Both the position numbers and the translations under genes were made by a program. The notes under the pieces were generated by a model. The model saw only the letters and a list, made by a program, of their open reading frames with translations. It was not told the origin of the DNA and searched no databases. Positions 3,422 through 64,000 of a DNA stretch of 64,000 nt are shown piece after piece. Every line of letters begins with the position of its first letter. Position 1 is the stretch's first letter. Source of the DNA: Cryptosporangium aurantiacum (GTDB lineage Bacteria; Actinomycetota; Actinomycetes; Mycobacteriales; Cryptosporangiaceae); the NCBI RefSeq assembly GCF_900143005.1, contig NZ_FRCS01000006.1:1-64000 (forward strand), written 5' to 3'.

Positions 3422-4367
3422 AATAGTCGGCGCCGGGCTGTTGGCGCACGTCCCGACGATCGTCCTGCCGGAGGAGACGCGGCGCGAGCTGAACAACGGT
3501 GAGGACTCCACGCTCGTCGCGGGTCTCCAGCAGCTGCGGCGCGAGGTCTTCGAGACGCTCGACTACGACACGGTCGTCGTGCTCGACTCGCACTGGGCCA
3601 CCACCGTCGAGTTCGTGGTGACCGCGCAGGACCGCCGCAGCGGGCTGTTCACGTCCGAGGAACTACCCCGGGGCATGCAGCGCCGCCCGTACGACTTCCC
3701 CGGTGACCCCGAACTCGCCCACCTGATCGCGAGCAAGGCCGCCGACCATTCCACCTGGATCACCGCGATCGACGACCACTCGCTGCCGATCTTCTACGCC
3801 ACCACGAACCTCTGGGAGTTCCTCGGCCAGGGGCTGCCCGAGAAGCGGTGGATCTCGATCGGCGTCTGCCAGACCGCCGACGGCGAGGACGCCTACCGGC
3901 TGGGCCGGGCGCTGGGCGACGCGATCGCCGCCTCCGACCGGAAGGTCGTGCTGATCGCCTCCGGCGCCATGTCGCACACGTTCTGGCCGCTGCGCCAGCT
4001 CCGGGACCACGAGGCCGCCGGACACGAACACATCTTCTCGCCGGGAGCGCTGGCTGCGGACCTGGAGCGGATCGAGTGGTTCAAGGCCGGGGACCACCAA
4101 CGGGTCCTCGACACCATGCCCGAGTTCTTGCGCTTCCGCCCGGAGGCGAAGTTCATGCACTACCAGATGATGCTCGGCGCGCTCGGCGAGGAACGCTGCA
4201 CCGCGACCGGCCGCCAGTACGGGGAGTACGAGAACTCGGTCGGCACCGGCCAGGCCCACCTCTGGTTCGACCGGCCCGCGGACGGCTTCCCCTCCCCCAA
4301 GACGACGCCGCTCGACCCCGACTACGTCCGCCAGACCGGCGGCCCCGACCTGCCCGCCGCCGGCTGA
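3414..4367 (+). CDS. hpaD: 3,4-dihydroxyphenylacetate 2,3-dioxygenase (class III extradiol, LigB fold)
   Basis: A non-haem Fe(II) ring-cleaving dioxygenase opening homoprotocatechuate next to the hydroxyls. The 317-residue protein follows the E. coli W HpaD order of motifs: an N-terminal HVPTIVLPEE (HVPSM-type), VVVLDSHWATTVEF, LFTSEELPRGM, YDFPGDPELAHLIA, IASGAMSHTFW, MLGALGEE and a terminal GTGQAHLWF. These include the His-containing segments expected to bind iron. It lies between HpaE- and fumarylacetoacetase-type genes, as in known homoprotocatechuate operons. The ATG overlaps the hpaE stop codon by 8 bases, indicating translational coupling. Substrate specificity (homoprotocatechuate or another substituted catechol) is inferred from this match and the neighbours. 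Confidence 0.85.
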   Translation: MGEIVGAGLLAHVPTIVLPEETRRELNNGEDSTLVAGLQQLRREVFETLDYDTVVVLDSHWATTVEFVVTAQDRRSGLFTSEELPRGMQRRPYDFPGDPELAHLIASKAADHSTWITAIDDHSLPIFYATTNLWEFLGQGLPEKRWISIGVCQTADGEDAYRLGRALGDAIAASDRKVVLIASGAMSHTFWPLRQLRDHEAAGHEHIFSPGALAADLERIEWFKAGDHQRVLDTMPEFLRFRPEAKFMHYQMMLGALGEERCTATGRQYGEYENSVGTGQAHLWFDRPADGFPSPKTTPLDPDYVRQTGGPDLPAAG

Positions 4368-8325: not shown

Positions 8326-9699
8326 ATGACTGAAGGGCAGGGCCTCGTGGCTCACTTCGACACATCGGGGCTCCAGCCCGCCCAGGAGCGGCTCGTCGCC
8401 GAGGGCATCGACGTCGTCCGGCTCGGATACGCCGACCTGATCGGGGTGGACCGCGGACGAGACGTCCTGGTCAACCACTTCCCGCGCACGGTCGGCGGCG
8501 GCGTGGCGTTTTGCCGCTCGGTGTTCGGCACGACGCCGCGCGGGGGCGTCGTCGACATCGAGGGCGGCCTGTCCGCGGGGCTGCCGGACGTCGTCGCGTT
8601 CCCCGACCTGAGCACGTTGCGTCCGCTGCCGTGGGAGCCCGGCGTCGCACACTGCATCGCCGACGTTTTCAACCCCGACGGCACACCGGCGCTGGAGAGC
8701 CCGCGCCAGGTGCTGCGCCAGCTGTGCGAGCTGTTCGCCGCCGAGTCGATTGCCCCGGTCGTCGGGCCCGAGCTCGAGTTCTACCTGCTGGCCGAGAACC
8801 CGGGGTCCCCCACCGGCTGGCAGCGCTACGGCGAGGGCACCGGCAACGTCTACACGTCCGGACGCAAGGGCGACCCGGAGAACGTGCTGCTGGAATCCCT
8901 GCGGCAGCTCGGCGACTACGGCATCGACGTGGTGGCGGCCAACCACGAGTTCTCCTCCGGACAGTTCGAGATCAACCTCTGGCACGGCGACGCCCTGGAC
9001 GCCGCCGACCGCGCCCACCGGTTCAAGGACGCGGTCAAGGAACTCGCCCGTCGGCGGGGCCACCTGGCCACGTTCATGCCGAAGCCGTTCAACGACGAGG
9101 GCGGCTCCGGCTACCACCTGCACCTCTCGCTCCAGGACGCCGACGGCGCCCCGCTGTTCGACGACCCGTCGGCCCCGGACGGGCTGTCCCCGGTGGCTCA
9201 CCACGCGATCGGCGGGATCCTGGCTCACGCACCGGCGATCGCCGCGGTCGCCAACCCCACGATCAACTCCTACAAGCGGTTCGGCCCGGACACGCTGGCC
9301 CCCTGGCTGATCGACTGGGGACTGGACAACCGCAGCGCGATGGTGCGGATCCCGCCCGAGCGGGGCCACGCCGCCCGGCTCGAGCTGCGCCTGGGCGACG
9401 CCAGCGCGAACTCCTACCTCGCGATCGCCGGGATGCTGGCCGGAGCCCTGCTGGGCATCCGCAACAAGATCGAACCGCCGGAGGCACTGGTCGGCTACGG
9501 CTACGACACCACGCGCGCGGCCAAGCTGCCGCAGAGCCTGCCCGAAGCCCTCGACGCCCTCGAAGCCGACGACCAGATCGCCGACCTGCTGGGGCGGCCG
9601 TTCGTCAACACGTTCCTCGCCTACAAACGCGACGAGGTCGAACGCTTCCGCACCTGGATCACCGACTGGGAGTTCCAGGAATACACGTACCACATCTGA
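8326..9699 (+). CDS. Glutamine synthetase-like gamma-glutamyl-amine ligase (PuuA/GlnA3-4/IpuC type)
   Basis: Members of this group use ATP to join glutamate to an amine (putrescine, isopropylamine, ethanolamine, aniline) rather than ammonia. The protein (457 residues; 450 if the GTG at 8347 is used) has GS active-site segments: GPELEFYLL (metal ligands), NHEFSSGQFEINL, FMPKPFNDEGGSGYHLHLSL, NPTINSYKRFGPDTLAPW, RIPPERGHAARLELRLGDASANSYL. The PTINSYKR-type segment is shared with true GS. The N-terminus is short and no adenylylation-site Tyr loop is evident. Its neighbours (permease, PuuD-like hydrolases, ALDH, P450, GabT) favour the catabolic role. It heads an operon with the P450, 32 bases downstream. 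Confidence 0.85.
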   Translation: MTEGQGLVAHFDTSGLQPAQERLVAEGIDVVRLGYADLIGVDRGRDVLVNHFPRTVGGGVAFCRSVFGTTPRGGVVDIEGGLSAGLPDVVAFPDLSTLRPLPWEPGVAHCIADVFNPDGTPALESPRQVLRQLCELFAAESIAPVVGPELEFYLLAENPGSPTGWQRYGEGTGNVYTSGRKGDPENVLLESLRQLGDYGIDVVAANHEFSSGQFEINLWHGDALDAADRAHRFKDAVKELARRRGHLATFMPKPFNDEGGSGYHLHLSLQDADGAPLFDDPSAPDGLSPVAHHAIGGILAHAPAIAAVANPTINSYKRFGPDTLAPWLIDWGLDNRSAMVRIPPERGHAARLELRLGDASANSYLAIAGMLAGALLGIRNKIEPPEALVGYGYDTTRAAKLPQSLPEALDALEADDQIADLLGRPFVNTFLAYKRDEVERFRTWITDWEFQEYTYHI

Positions 9700-53685: not shown

Positions 53686-54930
53686 CTACGCCGGGCCGAG
53701 CGGGCCCGGTCCGTCCGAGCCGTCCGCCGCCGACCGCGGGGGCCGGCCCTGAGCAGCGACGCCGCGGGCCAGCACGTCGTCGGCCTCGGCCGCGGTCAGC
53801 CCCGCCTCGAGCAGCAACGCCCGGGTGTGCTGCCCGAGCGCCGGGACATCGCCCATCCTGGCCTCGACGTCCGCGAACGTCGCCGGCGGCAGCAGCGCGG
53901 GAACGCGTGCGTGCTCGGTGCCGATCGTCCGCCAGCGGTCCCGCTCGCGCAGTTGTGGATGCGCCAGGACCTCGCCCATCTCCCGCACCTCCGCGGCCGG
54001 GACACCGGCCGCCGCCAGCCGGGCGTCCAATTCGACGGTGGACCAGCGCGCGGTCTGTTCCGCCACCAGCGCGTCGCACTCCGCGCGGTTCCGCACCCGG
54101 TCCAGGTTCGTGACAAAACGCGGGTCGTCGGCCAGGTCCGGAACTCCCAGCACGCCGGTGACCAGCGCCCGCCAGCCGGAGTCGTTCTGAACCCCGATCA
54201 GGATCTGACCGTCCCGCGTCGGATACGCGTCGTAGGGTGCGATCGCGCCGTGGCTCAGGCCCATCCGTGCGGGCTGCTCCCCGGTGTGCATCGACGTGTA
54301 CAGCGGATAGCCCATCCACTCGACGGTCGCCTCCAGCATCGACACGTCGACCGTGGCGCCCTCGCCGGTCCTGGCGCGACGCAGCAACGCGGCGAGGACC
54401 GACTGCGCGCAGTACATCCCCGCCGCGATGTCCGCGGTCGGGATGCCGGTCTTCACCGGCGTCGCGGGCGTGCCGGTGATCGACACCAGGCCGGCCTCGG
54501 CCTGGACCAGCATGTCGTAGGCCTTGCGGTGCTCGTACGGACCGCCGGCCCCGTACCCGGAGAGGTTGACCACGACCAGCTCCGGACGCTCCGCGCGGAG
54601 TTCGGCGGCGTCCAGACCGAGCCGCGCGGCCGCACCCGGCGCCAGGTTCTGCACGAACACGTCCGCACGGTCCACCAGACGCCGGACGATCCGCCGGCCC
54701 TCGTCCGTTTTCAGGTCGACGGCGAGCGACTCCTTGCCGCGGTTGAGCCAGACGAAGTGCGCCCCGGTGCCGTGGACGACGTGGTCGTAGTCCCGGGCGA
54801 AGTCCCCCCGTCCCACCCGCTCCACCTTGATCACCCTGGCGCCGAGGTCGGCGAGGTTCCGGGTGGCCAGCGGCGCGGCCACGGCCTGCTCCAGTGCGAC
54901 GACGGTCACGCCGTCCAGTGGTCGGTTCAT
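53686..54930 (-). CDS. Class III (CaiB/BaiF-type) acyl-CoA transferase
   Basis: The 414-residue protein begins LDGVTVVALEQAVAAPLATRNLADLGARVIKVER, the standard family III opening. It has NRGKESLAVDLKTDEGR, FVQNLAPGAAARLGLD, YGAGGPYEHRKAYDMLVQAEAG with the catalytic Asp in YDML, and ending sections typical of the second domain. The family moves CoA from one acyl acid to another through an aspartyl-CoA intermediate. By context it activates an acid for the carboxylase/hydratase operon at 56.8-63.3 kb. It follows the NAD-epimerase gene with a 49-base gap. Acid substrate unknown. Confidence 0.85.
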   Translation of the reverse strand: MNRPLDGVTVVALEQAVAAPLATRNLADLGARVIKVERVGRGDFARDYDHVVHGTGAHFVWLNRGKESLAVDLKTDEGRRIVRRLVDRADVFVQNLAPGAAARLGLDAAELRAERPELVVVNLSGYGAGGPYEHRKAYDMLVQAEAGLVSITGTPATPVKTGIPTADIAAGMYCAQSVLAALLRRARTGEGATVDVSMLEATVEWMGYPLYTSMHTGEQPARMGLSHGAIAPYDAYPTRDGQILIGVQNDSGWRALVTGVLGVPDLADDPRFVTNLDRVRNRAECDALVAEQTARWSTVELDARLAAAGVPAAEVREMGEVLAHPQLRERDRWRTIGTEHARVPALLPPATFADVEARMGDVPALGQHTRALLLEAGLTAAEADDVLARGVAAQGRPPRSAADGSDGPGPLGPA

Positions 54931-54979: not shown

Positions 54980-56089
54980 CTACGCCGATCCTTTGGCGGT
55001 CTGCGGCACCGACATGCGCCGGATCGTGGCCCGGAACGGCGCCGTGTACTCGTCCAGGTCGCGCACCAGCCCCTGGTACGCCGCCATCAAGGCGTCCTCG
55101 GCGTCGTAGTCGAACGGATCGGTCGTCCCGGCCCGGCGCAGCTGTGCCTCGTTGTCGATCATCCACTCGACGGTGTCCCGCAGCCCGTCCCGCAGCGAGA
55201 CGACGTCGCGGTACCCCAGGTCGGTACGGAGCCGGGACGTGTCGAGAACACAGCTCGCGGTCTCCCGGCCACCGAACGCCGACATCGCCCACCCGGGGCC
55301 GGCGAGTTCGCTCGGCAGCGAACGGATCTCCAGGTCGGCTCCGGCCGCGCGGGCGACCAGCTCGGCCCACTGCCGGACGGTGACCAGCTCGTCGTCGGCG
55401 ACGTGGTACGCACGCCCGGCGGCCACCTCGGGCCGGTCCACGGCCAGCAGGACGGCTTCGGCGGCGTTGCGGGCGGCGGCGCGGGAGTGCACACCGTGGC
55501 CGCCGTCGGCGAGGATCATCCACGGCCGTCCGTCCAGAACCCGCCGCACGACGTTCCACTCCCAGGCGTACGGGTTCCGCGGCCCGTAGATGATCGGGTA
55601 TCGCACGTACGTCGCGCCGAACGCGCCCGCGGCGTCGAGTGCGAAGACGACGTCCTCGGCGGCCCGGATCGGCCCGACGTCGTACCCGGCGAACCGTGGC
55701 GCGTCGACCCGGACGCGCGGGTGGTCCTCACCGACCGGCAGCCGCACACCGGCCGGGGACAGCTCCGCCGGATTGACGTAACCCCGGTAGACGGGAGTGC
55801 CGCCGATCGCGACGAAGTGCTCGCAGCGGTGCGCGAAATGACGGGCCAGCAGCCGGACCCGCCCGTAGGTCGCGACGACGGTGTCGAACGTGCGCGCGCC
55901 GACGGCCTCGGCGATCCCCGTCTCGTCGAACGGGTTGCCGTGGAGGTGGGGTACGTCCGGAGCGCCGGCGATCTCGTGGCGTCCGGTGTGGAACACGGTC
56001 ACCGCGTGACCGCGGGCGATGAGCCCCTCGACGAGCGGCAGACCGGTCGGGCCGGTCCCCCCGACGACCAGGACGTTCCGCACCGCCAT
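54980..56089 (-). CDS. NAD-dependent epimerase/dehydratase-like protein (extended SDR)
   Basis: The 369-residue protein has the dinucleotide-binding start NVLVVGGTGPTGLPLVEGLIARGH, which is the GxxGxxG motif. It also has GYDVGPIRAAEDVVF and TYVRYPIIYGPRNPYAWEW, where the usual YxxxK is not clear. This resembles atypical extended SDRs (isoflavone-reductase or RNA-binding-like) that may lack dehydratase activity. ATG 56089 is preceded by GGAGGGAG. It lies between TetR and CoA-transferase genes on the same strand, so may be a member of the TetR-controlled group. Reaction uncertain. Confidence 0.72.
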   Translation of the reverse strand: MAVRNVLVVGGTGPTGLPLVEGLIARGHAVTVFHTGRHEIAGAPDVPHLHGNPFDETGIAEAVGARTFDTVVATYGRVRLLARHFAHRCEHFVAIGGTPVYRGYVNPAELSPAGVRLPVGEDHPRVRVDAPRFAGYDVGPIRAAEDVVFALDAAGAFGATYVRYPIIYGPRNPYAWEWNVVRRVLDGRPWMILADGGHGVHSRAAARNAAEAVLLAVDRPEVAAGRAYHVADDELVTVRQWAELVARAAGADLEIRSLPSELAGPGWAMSAFGGRETASCVLDTSRLRTDLGYRDVVSLRDGLRDTVEWMIDNEAQLRRAGTTDPFDYDAEDALMAAYQGLVRDLDEYTAPFRATIRRMSVPQTAKGSA

Positions 56090-56132
56090 CACTCCCTCCG
56101 CCGTCGCGGGCCCGGGGCGGAGGGACGAACTC

Positions 56133-56759
56133 CTAGTCCGCCACGAGGCCGCGGAGAATCAGGTCGGCGAACTGTTCGCCGATGTGCCGGGGGGTGAACT
56201 CCCCGCCGGGCCGGAACCAGCGGTAGACCCAGTTCACCGAGCCGAGAATGGCCAGGCTGGCCAGCTTGGGGTCGATGTCGTCGCGCACCAAGCCGTCGGC
56301 CTTGGCCTTGCTGACCAGGTCGAGGAAGACCGAGCGGTAGGCGTGCTCGCCGCCGAGGATCTCGGCCTGCCGTTCCGGCGGCAACGACTCCATCTCGTGC
56401 AGGAACACGGTGGTGCCGGTCAGGTGGCGGCACATGTGCTCGATGTGCCCGACGATGACGTTGCGGAGCTTCTGCAGCGGATCGCCGGGCTGGCTCGCCA
56501 GCGCGACGATGTTCTCCAGGCCCTGCCGGTGCACCTCGTTGATGACCTCGAAGAGAAGATCTTCCTTCGAGTGGATGTAGTAGTACAGGCTGCCCTTCAG
56601 CATCCCGAGCCGGTCGGCGATGTCCTGAAGCGACGCTCCCTCGTACCCCTTCTCGTGGAAGATGTCGGTGGCGACCGCGAACAGCTCCGCCCACCGCTCC
56701 TCGCGAGGTTTGCGCGAGCCGCCTCCCCGACGCTGTGCTCGGCCTGCCGGCTGCGGCAC
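56133..56759 (-). CDS. TetR family transcriptional regulator
   Basis: The 208-residue protein has an N-terminal helix-turn-helix (AELFAVATDIFHEKGYEGASLQDIADRLGMLKGSLYYYIHSKEDLLFEV) typical of TetR/AcrR. A C-terminal all-helical ligand domain follows (MCRHLTGTTVFLHEMESLPPERQAEIL). The YYYIHSKEDLL resembles KstR/FadR-like repressors, which sense acyl-CoA esters. The GTG start is preceded by GAGG. A 22-bp palindrome lies 40 bases upstream of the start (56799-56820), and a closely related one is at the divergent acyl-CoA carboxylase promoter (63299-63320), so it most likely represses both and is released by a CoA-ester. Confidence 0.88.
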   Translation of the reverse strand: MPQPAGRAQRRGGGSRKPREERWAELFAVATDIFHEKGYEGASLQDIADRLGMLKGSLYYYIHSKEDLLFEVINEVHRQGLENIVALASQPGDPLQKLRNVIVGHIEHMCRHLTGTTVFLHEMESLPPERQAEILGGEHAYRSVFLDLVSKAKADGLVRDDIDPKLASLAILGSVNWVYRWFRPGGEFTPRHIGEQFADLILRGLVAD

Positions 56760-56798: not shown

Positions 56799-56820
56799 CT
56801 ACCAAACGGCCGATTTGTAG
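56799..56820. promoter_or_regulatory. TetR operator candidate (tetR promoter)
   Basis: A 22-bp imperfect palindrome, left half CTACCAAACGG and right half CCGATTTGTAG. It lies between the oxidoreductase stop at 56826 and the tetR start at 56759. It shares the CTACCA.ACG pattern with the site at 63299-63320. Confidence 0.75.
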
Positions 56821-56825
56821 CGTGT

Positions 56826-58736
56826 TCATACCGTGAGCCCGGCGTCGGCACCCGCGTTCACCGCGCGCACGAAGTCCGCAGGGATCTCGGCGTCACCCAG
56901 CACCCGGACGTCGACGCCCAGCAGCGCCAGCTCGGTGGTGATCGCCGTTCCGGAGGCGCGCCACCCGATCGCCAGCGCGACCAGATCAGTGTCGAGGGTC
57001 TCCTCCTCGCCGCCTGCGCCTGCCGGGCGCCACCGCACCAGCCCGGGCTCGAAGCCGACCACGACCGCGCCGGTCAGGATGCGGACGCCGTCGCGGCGGA
57101 GTTGTTTGACCAGCTGCCTGCGGGTGATCGCCTCCACGCCCCGGCCGATGCTCCCGGCCATCTCGACGATCGTGACCTCGGCGCCCCGGGCGCACATCAG
57201 CTCGGCGGTCTCGCAGCCGGTGGCGCTTCCCCCGACCACCACCAGCCGGGTGCCCGGCTCGACCGTGACCTCGCCGAGGAGCAGACGCTGGGCGTCGTGC
57301 ACGGCCGGCCCGTCGATGCCGGGGATCGGCGGCACTAGCGGTTCCGCGCCGGTGGCGACGACCACGACGTCCGGGTGGTGCCGTTCGACCGTGCGCGCCG
57401 AGACCGGCGCGGAGGTGTGGACCTCGACGCCCAGCTCCACGAGCAGACGCGCCTGGAAGTCGCGGAAGCGGAGGACCTCCTGTTTGCTCGGGGCCGCTCC
57501 GGCCACCGTGAGTTTCCCGCCGAGCGTGCGGTCCCGCTCCCAGATCGACACCCGGTGCCCGCGCAGCCGGGCGATCCGGGCCGCCTCCAGTCCGGACGGC
57601 CCGGAGCCGACGACCATCACCCGGCGCGGCGTCGCGGCCGGTTTGACCGCCCAGGTCAGCTCCCGGCCCACCTCGGGGTTGACCGCGCACCGCGCGCGCT
57701 CGCCGCGTCCGACCAGGTCCACGCAGGCGTTGCACGCGATGCACGGCCGGACGTCGCCCAGCCGGCCCGCGCGGACGAGGTTCGGCCAGTCCGGCTCGGC
57801 GATCAGCCCGCGGCCGAGCAGGATCAGGTCGGCGTCCCCGGAGGCGACGACGTCCGCGGCCAGGTTCGGGGAGTCCAGGCGCCCGACCGCCATCACCGGC
57901 ACCGACACGGCCTGCCGGACCGCGCGCGCCAGCGGACGCATGTGTCCGCGCGGTACCGCCATCGGCGCCAGCGTCTGGTGCAGCGTTAGCCAGGTCCCGG
58001 AGGACACCGAGATCGACGCGACGCCGGCGTCCTCCAGCATCCGCGCGACGGCCACCGCCGACTCCACGTCGAACCCGCCGGGCTCGGCGTCGGTGCCGTT
58101 GAGCCGCCAGACGAGCGGCAGATCGCACGCCGCGCCGATGGCCTGCGCCACCTCGATCGAGAACCGGGCCCGGTTCGCGAGCGTCCCGCCGTAGGCGTCG
58201 GTACGGACGTTGTGCCGGGCCGACAGGAAGTTCGACGGCAGGTAACCGTGCGCGCCGTGCACCTCGACGAAGTCGAAGCCGGCGTCCGCCGCGAACCGCG
58301 CCGCCTGCGCGTAGTCGGCGACGATCCGCTTGATCTCCGGGACGGTCAACGCGTGCGGGGTCGGCGCGACCGAGTTCAGCGGAACCGGTGACGGCGCGAC
58401 CGACGGACCGTCGGTCACCTGCCGGCCCGGGTGCATGAGTTGGACGCCGACCTTCGTGCCGTGCGGCCGCACCGCCTCGACGATCCGGCGGAGGCCCGGC
58501 ACGTACTGCGGTCCGCACAGACGTGGCTCCGGTCCGCGGCTGTCCGGCGAGACCAGACAGCCCTCGACCGTGATCGCGCCGACGCCGCCCTCGGCGCGCC
58601 GCCGGTAGTAGGCGACCGTGTCCTCGGTGACGAACCCGTCCCGGTCCAGGCAGGTTCCCATCGGCGCCATGACCAGCCGGTTGGGAAGCGTGAGCCGGCC
58701 CAGGCGGAGCGGCGTGAACAGCACCCCGGTGTTCAC
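56826..58736 (-). CDS. Old Yellow Enzyme/2,4-dienoyl-CoA reductase-like NADH:flavin oxidoreductase
   Basis: The 636-residue protein has an N-terminal FMN TIM barrel (LFTPLRLGRLTLPNRLVMAPMGT, GVQLMHPGRQ, FVEVHGAHGYLPSNFLS), a 4Fe-4S cluster segment CIACNACVDLVGRGERARCAVNP, and a C-terminal FAD/NAD(P) domain (VMVVGSGPSGLEAARIA and LVVVGGSATGCETAELM). This is the FadH or trimethylamine-dehydrogenase-like architecture, reducing conjugated double bonds. It starts with a GTG overlapping the ferredoxin stop (GTGA). It is the last gene of the operon that starts at 63266. It probably reduces an enone or dienoyl intermediate, but the substrate is inferred only from context. Confidence 0.88.
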   Translation of the reverse strand: MNTGVLFTPLRLGRLTLPNRLVMAPMGTCLDRDGFVTEDTVAYYRRRAEGGVGAITVEGCLVSPDSRGPEPRLCGPQYVPGLRRIVEAVRPHGTKVGVQLMHPGRQVTDGPSVAPSPVPLNSVAPTPHALTVPEIKRIVADYAQAARFAADAGFDFVEVHGAHGYLPSNFLSARHNVRTDAYGGTLANRARFSIEVAQAIGAACDLPLVWRLNGTDAEPGGFDVESAVAVARMLEDAGVASISVSSGTWLTLHQTLAPMAVPRGHMRPLARAVRQAVSVPVMAVGRLDSPNLAADVVASGDADLILLGRGLIAEPDWPNLVRAGRLGDVRPCIACNACVDLVGRGERARCAVNPEVGRELTWAVKPAATPRRVMVVGSGPSGLEAARIARLRGHRVSIWERDRTLGGKLTVAGAAPSKQEVLRFRDFQARLLVELGVEVHTSAPVSARTVERHHPDVVVVATGAEPLVPPIPGIDGPAVHDAQRLLLGEVTVEPGTRLVVVGGSATGCETAELMCARGAEVTIVEMAGSIGRGVEAITRRQLVKQLRRDGVRILTGAVVVGFEPGLVRWRPAGAGGEEETLDTDLVALAIGWRASGTAITTELALLGVDVRVLGDAEIPADFVRAVNAGADAGLTV

Positions 58737-58927
58737 GGCAGCACCTGGAGGGCCCGGACCGGGCAGGCGCTGACGCCGAGTTCGGCGGTGGCCTCCTCCC
58801 CCGGCGGCACCGGCCGGTCCGGGCCCACGCCCGAGTAGCCGTCGTCGTCGAGCGGGAAGAGGTCGGGGTCGACGACGTAACACTGGGCGTGCCCCTCGCA
58901 CACGCCGGGCACCAGACCGACCCTCAC
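58733..58927 (-). CDS. Small P450-type ferredoxin (3Fe-4S/4Fe-4S)
   Basis: This 64-residue protein has Cys in GVCEGHAQCYVV and a later ACPVRAL. This is the C-x5-C...C-P pattern of short actinobacterial ferredoxins that feed P450s; the usual third cluster Cys of [4Fe-4S] is replaced, suggesting [3Fe-4S]. The start is a GTG overlapping the P450 stop by 4 bases (GTGA), and its stop overlaps the next gene's start. It is surely the electron donor for the P450 at 58924; no dedicated ferredoxin reductase lies in this operon. Confidence 0.88.
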   Translation of the reverse strand: MRVGLVPGVCEGHAQCYVVDPDLFPLDDDGYSGVGPDRPVPPGEEATAELGVSACPVRALQVLP

Positions 58928-60135
58928 GGCGAGCACCTCACCGGCAGCGCCTCCAGCGACCGGGACGCCAGGCTCGCCTTCCACTGCGGCTCCCCGGCCA
59001 GGGCGAGTCCCGGCATCCGCGCGACGACGCGCGCCAGCGCGATCCGGGTCTCCATCCGCGCGAGCTGCGCGCCGATGCAGGCGTGGATGCCTTTTCCGAA
59101 GGCCACGTGCGGGTTGGGGCTGCGGCCCAGGTCCAGGACGTCCGGGTCGGTGAACTTCTCCGGATCGCGGTTGGCCGCGGCGAGGACAAGATGGACCCGC
59201 TGCCCCGGAGCGATCGTCCGGCCCTGAATCTGGGTTTCGCTCACCACCCAGCGGTTCAGCACCTTGATCGGGCCGTCGAAGCGCAGGAGTTCCTCGACCG
59301 CGGGGCCGATCAGCTCCGGTTCCTGCCGCAGCCGGTCGAGGTGGTCGGGGTGGCGGAGCAGCGCCAGCACGGAGTTCGCGATCGAGTTCGTCGTCGTCTC
59401 GTGCCCCGCGAACAGCAGCAGGGCGCACATCGCGACGAGTTCGTCGTCGGACAGGCCGTCGGAGCCGTCGCGCGCCATCAGCGCCGACAGCATGTCGTCG
59501 CCCGGGTCGCGGCGCCGCTGCTCGACCAGCGCACCGAAGTAGGTCTGCATCTCGATCAGGCCGCGCAGCGCCCGCTCGTGCCGTTCGGCCCTGGCCGCGC
59601 CGCCGGTGCCGAACGCGACGAGCGCCAGCTCGTCGGACCAGTCGCGGAAGCGGTCCCGGTCTTCCGGCGGGGCGCCGAGCATCGTCGCGATCACGATCGC
59701 GGGCAGCGGATACGCGACCCGCTCGATCAGGTCCTGCGGACCGGGCTCGGTCAGGAACGCATCGATGTGCTCGTCGACGATCCGCGTGATCATCTCGGTC
59801 ATGCCGGCGATCCGCTGGCCCTTGAACGCTCCGGCGGCGAGCTTGCGCAGCCGGGTGTGGGCGGGCGGATCCGAAACGACCATCCAGTCCGACATCAGCG
59901 AGAGCACGGTGGTCGTCGCCGGTCGGCCGGCGCGCGCGGCCAGCAGCGGCCGGACCCGGTCGCTGGACAGCGCCTTGTTCTGGAACGCCGCCGAGACGTC
60001 GTCGTAGCGGGTGATCAGCCACGCGCGGTGCGGCTCGCTCCAGTGCACGGGGTCGGAGTCGCGGAGGTCGCGCAGCAGCGGGTACGGGTCGGTGTTCGCC
60101 GGGAGCGCGAGCAGATCATCGGTGACGGCAGGCAT
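58924..60135 (-). CDS. Cytochrome P450 monooxygenase (second)
   Basis: The 403-residue P450 has an I-helix LLFAGHETTTNSI, helix K EELLR, and the haem-binding FGKGIHACIG with Cys353. The sequence is of the CYP105/107-like soluble type. The ATG at 60135 lies 10 bases from the NTF2-like gene's stop. It is followed by its own ferredoxin (overlap GTGA). The operon's other enzymes (carboxylase, hydratase, OYE reductase) suggest oxidation of a terpenoid, fatty or cyclic acid. This is an inference from the neighbours. Confidence 0.9.
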   Translation of the reverse strand: MPAVTDDLLALPANTDPYPLLRDLRDSDPVHWSEPHRAWLITRYDDVSAAFQNKALSSDRVRPLLAARAGRPATTTVLSLMSDWMVVSDPPAHTRLRKLAAGAFKGQRIAGMTEMITRIVDEHIDAFLTEPGPQDLIERVAYPLPAIVIATMLGAPPEDRDRFRDWSDELALVAFGTGGAARAERHERALRGLIEMQTYFGALVEQRRRDPGDDMLSALMARDGSDGLSDDELVAMCALLLFAGHETTTNSIANSVLALLRHPDHLDRLRQEPELIGPAVEELLRFDGPIKVLNRWVVSETQIQGRTIAPGQRVHLVLAAANRDPEKFTDPDVLDLGRSPNPHVAFGKGIHACIGAQLARMETRIALARVVARMPGLALAGEPQWKASLASRSLEALPVRCSP

Positions 60136-60145
60136 GCGCGTCCTC

Positions 60146-60943
60146 TCAGCTGCTGGAGACCGTGGGCTGCCGGGTGCGGCTGCGGGCGAGTCCGAGGCGG
60201 TCCCGCACGATCCAGCCGCCGCTGACCCGGCCCGCTCCGACGGTGACCAGACCGACGAGGTGCAGGGTCGCCGGAGTGTCGAGGTCGCCGGCGTACGCGC
60301 CGGAGGCGGTGACCCGGAAGGCGACGTACGCGCCCGCCGAGAACAGCTCGTCGACGTCCGACGTCGCGTCGGTGAGCAGGGCGGGACCGGCCTCGCCGTC
60401 GTCGAAGCGGACCGGGCCCGGTGGCTCAGTGGGCTGCACGGCCGCGCCGGAGGCGATCCAGTCGCGCACGACGGCCTCGGCCGCGGGATCGGCCGGTTCG
60501 GCGGGCGTGTCCCACGGTGCGAGCGCGGGCGGCTCGACCGCGGCCGGGATCCCGGACTCCAGCTGACGACGACGCGACAGGTAGTCCTGCTCCACGGCGT
60601 TGGCCACCAGGCGACGGCCGTTCCAGCGGTACAGCCCGAGCCCTGTCCACACCGCGATCCGGCCGTTCCGGGCGGATCGCCCGTGCTCGGAGAACCGCAT
60701 CGCCAGCCGTTCACCGTTGCCCACGATCGTGTGCACGGTCAGGCACAGCCCGGGAAACTGCGTGAACTGCCGCTGGGCCGCGGGGATGTACTGCTCGTCC
60801 CGGCCGGCGACCTCGTGCGGCCCCATCCGCAGGACGTACTCCGGCTCCATGATCTCCGCGCACACCGAGACGTCGTGGCGGTTGGTGTAGTCGTTGACGT
60901 ACCGCCGCATCAGCGCCACGAACGGGTCTGCCGCCGGGCCCAT
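60146..60943 (-). CDS. SnoaL/NTF2-like protein with C-terminal NTF2-like or helical extension
   Basis: The 265-residue protein begins FVALMRRYVNDYTNRHDVSVCAEIMEPEYVLRMGPHEVAGRDEQYIPAAQRQFTQFPGL, the NTF2-like cone fold used by SnoaL-type cyclases and limonene epoxide hydrolase-like enzymes. The second half (DPAAEAVVRDWIASGAAVQPTE on) is different and unassigned, with LDTPATLHLVGLVTVGAGRVSGGWIVRDR. It could be a second NTF2-like domain. It overlaps the hydratase stop (TGATG) and is next to a P450. An isomerase or hydrolase role is possible. No catalytic residues can be assigned. Confidence 0.65.
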   Translation of the reverse strand: MGPAADPFVALMRRYVNDYTNRHDVSVCAEIMEPEYVLRMGPHEVAGRDEQYIPAAQRQFTQFPGLCLTVHTIVGNGERLAMRFSEHGRSARNGRIAVWTGLGLYRWNGRRLVANAVEQDYLSRRRQLESGIPAAVEPPALAPWDTPAEPADPAAEAVVRDWIASGAAVQPTEPPGPVRFDDGEAGPALLTDATSDVDELFSAGAYVAFRVTASGAYAGDLDTPATLHLVGLVTVGAGRVSGGWIVRDRLGLARSRTRQPTVSSS

Positions 60944-61707
60944 CAGCGGCCCCCGAAGCGCGGCGGCCGCTTGGCGAGGAACGCGGCGATGCCCTCCGCC
61001 GCGTCCGCGGTGGCGTGCAGGCTGGTGAGCGCGCCGGTCGAGTGGTCGAACTCCCCGCGATCGACGCCACGGTTGACCAGGCTCTTGCCGGTGGCCACGG
61101 CCAGCGGCGCCCTCGTGGCGATGCGGGCGGCGAGTTCGCGGGCGGCGTCCAACAGGTGTTCGGCGGGAACCACTTTCTGCGCGAGCCCGATCCGCAACGC
61201 GGTGGCCGCGTCGACCCGCTCGCCGGTGAACATCATCAGCTTGGTCCAGTGCCTGCCGATCACGGCGGGCGCGCGCAGCGCGCCGAACCCGGGGACCAGC
61301 CCGACCGCGGTCTCCGGCATCGCGAACGTCGCGGTGTCGGCGGCGACGACGACGTCGCAGGCCAGTGCGAGCTCACACCCGCCGCCCATCGCGTAGCCGT
61401 TCACCGCGGCGATGATCGGCAGCGGCGACTCCTCGACCGCGGCGAACGTGCGCATGCAGTCCTGCTGGAACTCGCGTTTGGAGGCAACGTCGGTCAGCGC
61501 GGCGAAGCTGCCGATGTCACCGCCGGCCGAGAAGGCCTTGTCTCCGGCGCCGGTGAGGATCACCGCCCGGGTGGAGCCGTCGGCCGCGAGCCGGGCCAGG
61601 GCATCCCGGAGCTCGGCCCAGAACGTGCGGCCCATCGTGTTGAGCGTGGCCGGATCGCCGATCGTGAGCAGCGCGACCGCGTTCCCGGCTTCGACCTGGA
61701 GGCTCAC
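60943..61707 (-). CDS. Enoyl-CoA hydratase/isomerase family protein
   Basis: The 254-residue crotonase-fold protein has the oxyanion-hole segments FSAGGDIGSFAAL and AAVNGYAMGGGCELALACDVVVAADTATFAMPETAVGLVPGFG. The Glu in MPETAVGLVP is the position of the acidic catalytic residue. The C-terminal FLAKRPPRFGG is typical. The GTG start overlaps the carboxyltransferase stop by 4 bases (GTGA). It probably hydrates or isomerises a CoA-bound intermediate formed by the carboxylase. Confidence 0.88.
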   Translation of the reverse strand: MSLQVEAGNAVALLTIGDPATLNTMGRTFWAELRDALARLAADGSTRAVILTGAGDKAFSAGGDIGSFAALTDVASKREFQQDCMRTFAAVEESPLPIIAAVNGYAMGGGCELALACDVVVAADTATFAMPETAVGLVPGFGALRAPAVIGRHWTKLMMFTGERVDAATALRIGLAQKVVPAEHLLDAARELAARIATRAPLAVATGKSLVNRGVDRGEFDHSTGALTSLHATADAAEGIAAFLAKRPPRFGGR

Positions 61708-63266
61708 GCGAGGCCTCCGAGGGCGATGGTGATGCTCGCCGCCACGACGTCTCTGGTTCGGCCGGGTTCGATGACGTCGTCCAGCGACAGGTGCGCGGCG
61801 GCCTCCCACGGCTCGGACTCGCTGACCCACTCGGCGGTCAGTTCGGCGACCAGCGCGTCGTGCGCCGCCTGTCCCTGCTCGTCCAGCACGCGTTGCAGGC
61901 GCCGCCGGTGGATCGTGCGGATGCCGGTCTCGGGCGCCATGAAGCCCAGTTCGGCGCTGGGCCAGGCGTAGAGGAAGTCCGGTTCGGTCGGCCGCCCACC
62001 CATCGCGAAGTGGCCGCCGCCGTACGCCTTGCGGAGGACCACGCCGATCTTCGGCACGGTCGCTTCGGCGATCGCGGAGACCACCGCCTCGTAGCCGTGC
62101 AGGATGCCGCCGCGTTCGGCTTGGGTGCCGATCATCAGACCGGGGACGTCCTGCAGGAACACCAGCGGCAGTCCGAACGTGTCGCAGAGCTCCACGAACG
62201 CGCGTTCCTTCGCCAGCGCGGCCGGGTCGAGCGCACCGGCCCGCGCGATCGGCTGGTTGCCGATCAGCCCGACCGGCCGACCCTCGATCCGGGCGAGCGC
62301 GCACAGCAGGCTGGGGCCCCAGCCGTCGCCCCAGGGCAGGATGCTGGCCTCGTCCGCGAGGCACGCGAAGACGTCGCGCATGTCGTAACCGGACCGCGCG
62401 CCGAGCGGCACGATCGTCTCCAGCTCACCGGGGTCCCGCGCGGGCGGCAGCGGCGGCGCGAGCGGAGGGCGCTGGGTCGAATTCTGCGGTAGGTAGGACA
62501 GGAACGCGGCGATCGCGTCCAGCGCGTCGGCCTCGGTCTCGACGACGAGGTGCACGTTCCCGGCCTCGGTCGCCGCCGCGGGGCCGCCGAGTTCGGTGTC
62601 GGTGACCTTCTCGCCGATCGCCGGTTCGACCACGGACGGCCCGGACAGCGCGATCGATCCGCTGCGGACCATCACGACGAAGTGCGCGGTGGAGGCGTGC
62701 AGCGCGGAGTCCCCGTAGGACGGACCGAGCACCGCGGCGGCCCGCGGGATGCGCGGTGCGCCGGGCGGCGGCTTGAGGAACGTCGTGAAGTCCAGCGGCA
62801 GGCTGGAGAAGCGCCAGCCCGAGACGTCCGGCATCCGGCCACCGTCGGCGTCACAGAGCAGCACGAGGGGGAAACCGTGCCGCTGGGCGTGCTCGATCAG
62901 CCGTCCCTGCTTGCGCATGCTGATCGGTGCGGTGGTGCCGGCGACGACGCTGGAGTCGATGCCGATCACGCCGATCCGCCTGCCGTCGAGCAGCCCGAAC
63001 CCGGTGACGACGGCGTCACCGGGGATCGGCTTGTCGCGGCGCAGCTCAGGCAGTGCGAGGGCGCCGATCTCGAACCAGGTTCCGGGGTCGACGAGCAGGT
63101 CGATGCGCTCCCGGACGGGCAGGCGGCCGGATTCGCGGTGCCTTTTGAGTCCTTCCGGCCCGCCGCTGGCGAGCGCGGCTTCGCGCTTGTCGCGCAGCAC
63201 GGCGAGCCGGTCAGCCATCGTGACTTCGTCCGCGTTCCCGTTCGCGTTGATGGTCTTGGTCGTCAC
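61704..63266 (-). CDS. Acyl-CoA carboxylase carboxyltransferase (AccD/PccB-like)
   Basis: The 520-residue protein has the biotin-dependent carboxyltransferase fold, with RLPVRERIDLLVDPGTWFEIGAL, GVIGIDSSVVAGTTAPISMRK (oxyanion hole), VFLQDVPGLMIGTQAERGGILHGYEAVV, and AYGGGHFAMGG, which are landmarks of propionyl/acetyl-CoA carboxylase beta subunits. The GTG start has GGAGG 5 bases upstream and leads the operon. Its divergent partner at 63362 is the biotin carboxylase. Together with the hydratase and OYE gene this resembles geranyl-CoA/isohexenylglutaconyl or 3-methylcrotonyl-type carboxylase modules; the specific acyl-CoA is unknown. Confidence 0.88.
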   Translation of the reverse strand: MTTKTINANGNADEVTMADRLAVLRDKREAALASGGPEGLKRHRESGRLPVRERIDLLVDPGTWFEIGALALPELRRDKPIPGDAVVTGFGLLDGRRIGVIGIDSSVVAGTTAPISMRKQGRLIEHAQRHGFPLVLLCDADGGRMPDVSGWRFSSLPLDFTTFLKPPPGAPRIPRAAAVLGPSYGDSALHASTAHFVVMVRSGSIALSGPSVVEPAIGEKVTDTELGGPAAATEAGNVHLVVETEADALDAIAAFLSYLPQNSTQRPPLAPPLPPARDPGELETIVPLGARSGYDMRDVFACLADEASILPWGDGWGPSLLCALARIEGRPVGLIGNQPIARAGALDPAALAKERAFVELCDTFGLPLVFLQDVPGLMIGTQAERGGILHGYEAVVSAIAEATVPKIGVVLRKAYGGGHFAMGGRPTEPDFLYAWPSAELGFMAPETGIRTIHRRRLQRVLDEQGQAAHDALVAELTAEWVSESEPWEAAAHLSLDDVIEPGRTRDVVAASITIALGGLA

Positions 63267-63298
63267 CGGACCTCCGCTCTCCGTCCAGCGCCGCTAGA

Positions 63299-63320
63299 CT
63301 ACCAGACGTCCGGTTGGTAG
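63299..63320. promoter_or_regulatory. TetR operator candidate (carboxylase divergent promoter)
   Basis: A 22-bp imperfect palindrome with left half CTACCAGACGT and right half CCGGTTGGTAG, between the two carboxylase subunit genes. It matches the site at 56799-56820 at most conserved positions (CTACCA.ACG, then CCG.TT.GTAG). Confidence 0.75.
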
Positions 63321-63361: not shown

Positions 63362-64000
63362 ATGCCGGGAACGACCGTCCTGGTGGCGAACCGCGGCGAG
63401 ATCGCGGTGCGCGTCATCCGCGCCTGCCACGAGCTCGGCCTGCGTGCGGCCGCCGTCTACAGCGACGCCGACGCCGACGCTTTGCACGTGCGGCTGGCCG
63501 ACGAGTCTCACCGGATCGGCCCGGCTCCGGCCCGCGCGTCCTATCTCGACCGGGACGCCGTGCTGCGTGCCGCGTCGGCGTCCGGCGCTGACCTCGTCCA
63601 CCCGGGGTACGGGCTGCTCAGCGAGGACGCCGAGTTCGCGCGGGCGGTGACCGCGGCCGGGCTGGCGTTCGTCGGCCCTCCGGCGGAGGTCATCGCCGGG
63701 ATGGGCGACAAGGTCGCCGCCCGCGCGGTCGCGGAGAAGTGCGGCATCCCGGTGCCGCCGGGCACCGGTGCGCTGACTCCGGAGCAGGCGCTCGGCGAGG
63801 CCGCGCGGATCGGCTTCCCGCTCGTCGTCAAGGCCTCGTTCGGCGGTGGCGGGCGCGGCCTGCGGGTCGTGACGTCGGCCTCCGGCCTGGCCGGCGCGAT
63901 GGCCGCGGCCGGGCGCGAGGCCGGTGCCGCGTTCGGGCGGTCCGACGTCCACCTCGAGCGGTACCTCCAGCCGGCGCGGCACGTCGAGGTGCAGGTGTTC
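63362..64000 (+). CDS. Acyl-CoA carboxylase biotin carboxylase subunit, N-terminal part (window-truncated)
   Basis: The 213 codons present code for a biotin carboxylase: TVLVANRGEIAVRVIRACHELGLRAAAVYSDAD, DADALHVRLADESHRIGPAPARASYLDRDAVL, VHPGYGLLSEDAEFARAV, MGDKVAARA and the ATP-grasp glycine loop FPLVVKASFGGGGRGLRVV. The protein continues beyond the window, where a biotin carrier domain would be expected in a fused alpha subunit. The ATG has a GAGGAG at a normal spacing. It is divergent from the carboxyltransferase and shares the TetR operator. Confidence 0.9.
   Translation, partial: MPGTTVLVANRGEIAVRVIRACHELGLRAAAVYSDADADALHVRLADESHRIGPAPARASYLDRDAVLRAASASGADLVHPGYGLLSEDAEFARAVTAAGLAFVGPPAEVIAGMGDKVAARAVAEKCGIPVPPGTGALTPEQALGEAARIGFPLVVKASFGGGGRGLRVVTSASGLAGAMAAAGREAGAAFGRSDVHLERYLQPARHVEVQVF

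What the first reader, a model, noticed from the sequence alone, without database searches (positions are those of the whole stretch)
56799..63320. Matching 22-bp palindromes link TetR to a P450/OYE/carboxylase locus
Sites 56799-56820 and 63299-63320 share CTACCA-ACG and CCG-TT-GTAG halves. The first is at the tetR promoter, the second between the divergent carboxylase subunits. TetR regulators of this type often sense acyl-CoA, fitting a CoA-ester catabolic pathway.
Basis: partly seen in the sequence, partly recalled or inferred. Interest (0 to 1): 0.66.

Follow-up and report, generated by a model that had tools for sequence, protein, structure and literature searches.

The report
TetR operator regulon, P450/carboxylase catabolic cluster
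Two matching DNA palindromes are the likely switches of a small gene-control circuit: four such sites, recurring in related soil bacteria, would let one repressor protein control a set of genes that probably breaks down an unknown greasy compound; it is a new example of a familiar kind of circuit.

Summary
Both 22-bp palindromes are exactly where stated and not chance: 4 strand-wise matches in the window against 0.02 expected, and they are the only good matches in 9.58 Mb. A weight matrix built only from sites in other organisms ranks them first and second in the window (27.5 and 24.7 against 9.0). It also finds two more sites just beyond the window on the same contig, at 68936 and 71528. No position in 40 Mb of simulated DNA reached 21. 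The sites recur at orthologous promoters in Amycolatopsis acidicola (TetR 85% identical) and in front of carboxylase, CoA-transferase, acyl-CoA-ligase and P450 genes in a second genome of the order. Among 299 genomes of the order, only the window's genome and that one hold both the close TetR and the close carboxylase. The TetR is a TetR_C_24 protein related to KstR2; its operator resembles the published PfmR consensus. Best reading: a local, autoregulated TetR regulon of about 16 genes for a P450-initiated, CoA-thioester catabolic pathway, induced by a pathway acyl-CoA. Binding, repression, ligand and substrate are inferred, not shown. It is a new regulon of a known kind, well supported by comparative data but not surprising.

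The parts
56799..56820 (.). Site A: 22-bp operator CTACCAAACGGCCGATTTGTAG in the OYE-tetR gap, upstream of tetR
   Evidence: weaker counterpart (14 of 22 identical, left half 9 of 11) in the same gap of A. acidicola
63299..63320 (.). Site B: 22-bp operator CTACCAGACGTCCGGTTGGTAG between divergent carboxyltransferase and biotin carboxylase genes
   Evidence: same place in A. acidicola (18 of 22 identical) and in genome G086
56133..56759 (-). TetR-family regulator (TetR_N + TetR_C_24), predicted to bind sites A and B and the two outside sites
   Evidence: Pfam, solved relatives 3dcf, 3vpr, KstR2
54980..56092 (-). NAD-dependent epimerase/reductase-like protein, downstream of tetR
53686..54930 (-). 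Class III CoA-transferase (CaiB family), last gene downstream of tetR
56826..58736 (-). FMN/FAD OYE-type reductase (2,4-dienoyl-CoA reductase / BaiCD / mycofactocin OYE relatives, below the equivalog cut-offs)
58733..58921 (-). single-cluster ferredoxin, likely electron donor of the P450
   Evidence: the P450-ferredoxin-TetR neighbourhood recurs in A. acidicola and in G028
58924..60135 (-). cytochrome P450
60146..60943 (-). SnoaL-like protein
   Evidence: orthologue in A. acidicola (78%) and homologue in G028 (46%)
60943..61707 (-). enoyl-CoA hydratase/isomerase
61704..63266 (-). acyl-CoA carboxylase carboxyltransferase subunit (propionyl-CoA carboxylase/transcarboxylase-like)
63363..64000 (+). 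biotin carboxylase + biotin carrier subunit, 595 aa; continues past the window to contig position 65149

Best explanation
The two palindromes are operators of the TetR-family regulator encoded at 56133-56759. The dimer most likely binds four such sites on this contig. Site A controls tetR, the epimerase and the CoA-transferase. Site B controls the divergent carboxylase promoters, that is carboxyltransferase-hydratase-SnoaL-P450-ferredoxin-OYE on one side and biotin carboxylase on the other. Site C (68936-68957, outside the window) lies ahead of NTF2-like/acyl-CoA ligase/mycofactocin-type SDR/SDR. Site D (71528-71549, outside) lies ahead of an FAD oxidoreductase and an F420-type LLM enzyme. Bound TetR blocks these promoters. 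A CoA thioester formed by the pathway releases it, so a P450-initiated route that activates, reduces, hydrates and carboxylates an unknown hydrophobic substrate is switched on. Shown by computation: the sites, their rarity, their conservation and their co-occurrence with this TetR. Inferred: binding, repression, ligand, substrate.
For: Pattern rarity in window and genome. A matrix built from foreign sites only ranks A, B, C and D first to fourth in the contig stretch (27.5, 24.7, 22.4, 21.2; next 9.0), and no position in 40 Mb of simulated sequence reaches 21. A half-site pattern has 7 matches in 9.58 Mb, four of them these sites within 15 kb (the pattern was drawn from the four sites). In A. 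acidicola, orthologous genes (73-91% identical) carry sites at the counterparts of A, B and D. In G086 five sites sit in a 20-kb stretch with two TetR homologues and a divergent biotin carboxylase/carboxyltransferase pair, and a site precedes a P450 near a third homologue. Close TetR (E below 1e-60) and close carboxyltransferase (E below 1e-150) are each found in only 2 of 299 genomes of the order, the same two. Pfam TetR_C_24; sequence relative of KstR2. The published PfmR (TTHB023) consensus resembles the core.
Against: No binding or expression data. Site A is degenerate in A. acidicola (14 of 22 positions identical). Sites C and D are well short of the perfect palindrome. The genome has nine other TetR_C_24 domains over the family cut-off, any of which could in principle bind. 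In a pairwise alignment the KstR2 residue Arg162 is Gly here, so the CoA-contact pattern is not the same.
Confidence: 0.85

Rival explanations
1. The palindromes are operators, but of another regulator in the genome (a TetR_C_24 paralogue, or the MarR gene at contig 71542-72036), and the local TetR has other targets.
For: Ten TetR_C_24 domains score over the cut-off in the genome; a MarR-type gene lies next to site D. Genome G060 carries two sites of this type but no TetR hit at the strict cut-off.
Against: The sites cluster within 15 kb around this tetR and one lies directly upstream of it. Sites of this type recur beside homologues of this TetR in A. acidicola and G086, and these homologues share the recognition-helix stretch LKGS[LV]Y[YH]Y.
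Confidence: 0.08
2. The regulon is real, but the inducer is not an acyl-CoA: it is the free substrate or an early P450/SDR product.
For: Sites B, C and D would also control early oxidation and activation genes, so an upstream inducer is logical. KstR2 Arg162 aligns with Gly. The CoA-binding mode is not strictly conserved between TetR regulators (PMC11667970).
Against: KstR2, a sequence relative, binds HIP-CoA, and the regulated genes are dominated by CoA-thioester enzymes.
Confidence: 0.3
3. Chance or non-regulatory inverted repeats, for example a terminator hairpin at 63299.
For: The terminator scan lists 63299-63320 as a stem-loop with a weak T tail.
Against: It lies between divergent gene starts, so there is no gene end to terminate; it is conserved at the same place in two other genera; expected number by chance 0.02 per window.
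Confidence: 0.01

Closest known systems
PfmR (TTHB023) of Thermus thermophilus HB8
   Same: TetR repressor of acyl-CoA metabolism genes, autoregulated, with a pseudo-palindromic operator of similar core: TACCGACCGNTNGGTN (Agari et al., quoted in PMC7022988) against CTACCAACCGGACGTCTGGTAG here. PDB 3vpr, which I believe is PfmR (own knowledge), is the second-best solved relative.
   Different: Different gene set (no P450 and no carboxylase among the listed PfmR targets), different recognition-helix letters in 3vpr (LSKAALYHH against LKGSLYYY), and an actinobacterial host.
KstR2 of Mycobacterium tuberculosis (HIP-CoA-responsive TetR of cholesterol ring degradation)
   Same: Significant near full-length sequence match; catabolic CoA-thioester regulon. 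Trp166 of KstR2 is aligned with a Trp in phmmer but not in MAFFT.
   Different: Arg162 of KstR2 aligns with Gly; the operators differ as far as I recall (own knowledge); different enzymes.
Atu/Liu-type regulons of acyclic terpene and leucine catabolism (own knowledge)
   Same: Regulated acyl-CoA carboxylase next to an enoyl-CoA hydratase.
   Different: The carboxyltransferase is closer to propionyl-CoA carboxylase/transcarboxylase chains than to methylcrotonyl- or geranyl-CoA carboxylase; no AtuA-like or lyase gene was seen.

Membership tests
TetR family, TetR_C_24 subgroup | TetR_N helix-turn-helix plus TetR_C_24 domain above the Pfam cut-offs | tested here: met
   118.2 bits (cut-off 26.4) and 48 bits (cut-off 24)
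Autoregulated TetR regulon | operator upstream of the regulator gene and of target operons, rare elsewhere in the genome | tested here: met
Autoregulated TetR regulon | operator conserved at orthologous promoters in other genomes | tested here: met
Autoregulated TetR regulon | direct binding and de-repression | not testable with these tools
   needs gel shift and expression data
Acyl-CoA-responsive regulators (PfmR/KstR2 type) | binding of, and release by, a CoA thioester | not testable with these tools
   ligand unknown
KstR2 orthologue | conserved Arg162 and Trp166 (recalled as ligand-binding residues) | tested here: inconclusive
   Arg162 aligns with Gly; Trp166 aligns with Trp in the pairwise alignment but not in the multiple alignment
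Methylcrotonyl/geranyl-CoA carboxylase | carboxyltransferase closest to the MCC/GCC beta chains | tested here: not met
   best solved matches are transcarboxylase 12S and PCC beta (289.6 and 285.1 bits) against MCC 215.8 and GCC 194.6
Mycofactocin-coupled SDR (gene at contig 65981-66814, outside the window) | TIGR03971 above its cut-off, and the maturase gene in the genome | tested here: met
   411.2 bits against cut-off 300; TIGR03962 at 664 bits on contig C34

The most novel reading that the evidence does not exclude
An undescribed actinobacterial TetR subfamily with its own operator code (about CTACCA-N-ACG-NN-CG-N-TTGGTAG) travels with P450/ferredoxin and acyl-CoA carboxylase modules, and it marks an uncharacterised mycofactocin- and F420-linked catabolic pathway for a hydrophobic natural product.
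Probability: 0.5. Interest if true: 0.5.

Novelty: new member of a known kind. Interest (0 to 1): 0.36.

Why it matters
It defines a regulon, its operator and its likely members from sequence alone. The operator can be used to find the complete pathway and its relatives in other actinobacteria. The TetR/operator pair is a candidate biosensor for screening which compound induces the pathway, a direct way to the unknown substrate.

Tried and rejected
A first pattern with a 3-base spacer was mis-specified and found nothing. A looser whole-genome pattern gave about 150 hits per strand, fewer than its backward control, hence uninformative. The half-site pattern at 1 mismatch in other genomes is near its control numbers and was not used as evidence. 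A sigma-70 scan found no promoter at either site, so overlap with a promoter is not shown. The Agari et al. PfmR paper is not held; its consensus is quoted second-hand. Paper searches for this gene set found nothing specific. No structure prediction was run: TetR folds are alike and it would not settle the ligand.

Full report
Observation. The two sites are exactly as described: CTACCAAACGGCCGATTTGTAG at 56799-56820 and CTACCAGACGTCCGGTTGGTAG at 63299-63320. They share 18 of 22 positions and both are imperfect palindromes (9 and 8 of 11 arm positions complementary). The first is in the 66-bp gap between the OYE gene and tetR; the second separates the divergent carboxylase genes. In the window the shared pattern with up to 3 mismatches has 0.02 expected matches and occurs only at these two places. 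In the 9.58-Mb genome a symmetric version finds only these two and one weak 3-mismatch hit.

Extension. Sites found beside TetR homologues in other organisms (A. acidicola and genome G086) were used to build a weight matrix that contains neither window site. On contig positions 52000-90000 it ranks the two window sites first and second (27.5, 24.7), then two new sites outside the window at 68936-68957 (TTGACTAACGGCCGTTTGGTAG, 22.4) and 71528-71549 (TCGTCAAACGGTTGTTAGATAG, 21.2). The next score is 8.0 there and 9.0 in the window. In 40 Mb of simulated sequence with the same trinucleotide make-up no position reached 21 and one reached 20. A half-site pattern common to the four sites has 7 matches in the whole genome, and four of them are these sites; the pattern was drawn after seeing the four, so this is a consistency check. 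The foreign sites were themselves picked by similarity to a consensus of the window sites, so the matrix test is independent of the window letters but not of the motif idea; the two new sites and the positions of the foreign sites (gene starts of the same functions) are the independent part.

Genes under the sites. Site A precedes tetR, an epimerase-like gene and a class III CoA-transferase. Site B lies between biotin carboxylase/carrier (595 aa) and a run of carboxyltransferase, enoyl-CoA hydratase, SnoaL-like protein, P450, ferredoxin and OYE-type reductase. Site C precedes an NTF2-like gene, an acyl-CoA ligase, a mycofactocin-coupled SDR (TIGR03971, 411 bits against cut-off 300) and another SDR. 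Site D precedes an FAD oxidoreductase and an LLM enzyme of the F420 type. The genome has a mycofactocin maturase. That these runs are operons is inferred from spacing and strand.

Comparative evidence. In Amycolatopsis acidicola twelve of the sixteen proteins have orthologues at 73-91% identity in the same order, TetR at 85%; the epimerase, CoA-transferase, ligase and NTF2-like genes have no close hit in the stretch examined. The sites are kept at the counterparts of B (18 of 22), D (17 of 22) and, weakly, A (14 of 22); site C is missing together with the ligase and NTF2-like genes. In genome G086, of another family of the order, a matrix from the four window-genome sites gives five high scores (27.1 to 22.1; next 8.3) in one 20-kb stretch: between divergent biotin carboxylase and carboxyltransferase (71% identical), ahead of an AMP-binding ligase, ahead of a CoA-transferase, ahead of a TIM-barrel gene, and a fifth further along; two TetR homologues lie in this stretch. 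A third homologue of G086 lies near a P450 that has a site in front of it. Of 299 genomes of the order only the window's and G086 have the carboxyltransferase at E below 1e-150, and these two also hold the best TetR matches (58% identity in G086; the next genome is G028 at 48%). The three congeneric genomes searched have neither at these cut-offs, so the cluster looks accessory.

Regulator. The TetR has TetR_N and TetR_C_24 domains. Its closest solved relatives are 3dcf, 3vpr, 5k7f and KstR2. The published consensus of PfmR/TTHB023 (TACCGACCGNTNGGTN; and (a/c)Y(g/t)A(A/C)YGryCR(g/t)T(c/a)R(g/t)) resembles the core of these operators (PMC7022988). The TetR homologues in these clusters have LKGS[LV]Y[YH]Y in the recognition-helix region; 3vpr has LSKAALYHH and KstR2 LSGSLYHH. 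KstR2 binds HIP-CoA (PMC11667970). Arg162 of KstR2 is Gly here in the pairwise alignment; Trp166 is aligned to a Trp there but not in the multiple alignment, so the ligand cannot be read off.

Mechanism, with status. (1) TetR dimer binds A-D: strongly supported by conservation, not shown. (2) It represses: inferred from family and site position; a sigma-70 scan finds no promoter to overlap, which in this group is weak evidence either way. (3) A pathway CoA thioester induces: inferred from KstR2 and from the many CoA enzymes; about 65% likely. (4) Pathway: P450 with ferredoxin oxidises a hydrophobic substrate, SDRs oxidise the alcohol, the ligase makes the CoA ester, OYE and hydratase act on unsaturated esters, the carboxylase adds CO2; this order is a guess. 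The carboxyltransferase is nearer to PCC/transcarboxylase than to MCC/GCC, and the position that I recall as a substrate-specificity residue (Asp in PccB, Ile in AccB) appears to be Phe in the AYGGGHFAMGG stretch, so its substrate cannot be named.

Verdict. Observation confirmed, interpretation supported and extended from two to four sites. It is an ordinary kind of system, a new TetR regulon for an uncharacterised catabolic cluster.

Noticed in passing
contig C6 (window coordinates continued) 68936-68957 and 71528-71549; L007 16937-16958 and 19529-19550: Two further operator-like sites just beyond the window's right end, ahead of an acyl-CoA ligase/SDR run and of an FAD oxidoreductase/LLM run.
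   Followed up: yes
L025 positions 3790-3811 and 8573-8594 (genome G060): Two strong sites of the same type in a genome without a close TetR hit at the strict cut-off; the first lies between an SDR orthologue (61%) and another gene, the second near the start of a long ORF.
   Followed up: partly
L022 and L059 (genome G086): Five operator-type sites and two TetR_C_24 paralogues in 20 kb, with one more site at L059:3230; a possible cross-regulated pair of regulators.
   Followed up: partly
window 58733-58921: Small ferredoxin gene overlapping the start of the OYE gene by a few bases, suggesting translational coupling in the P450-ferredoxin-OYE run.
   Followed up: no
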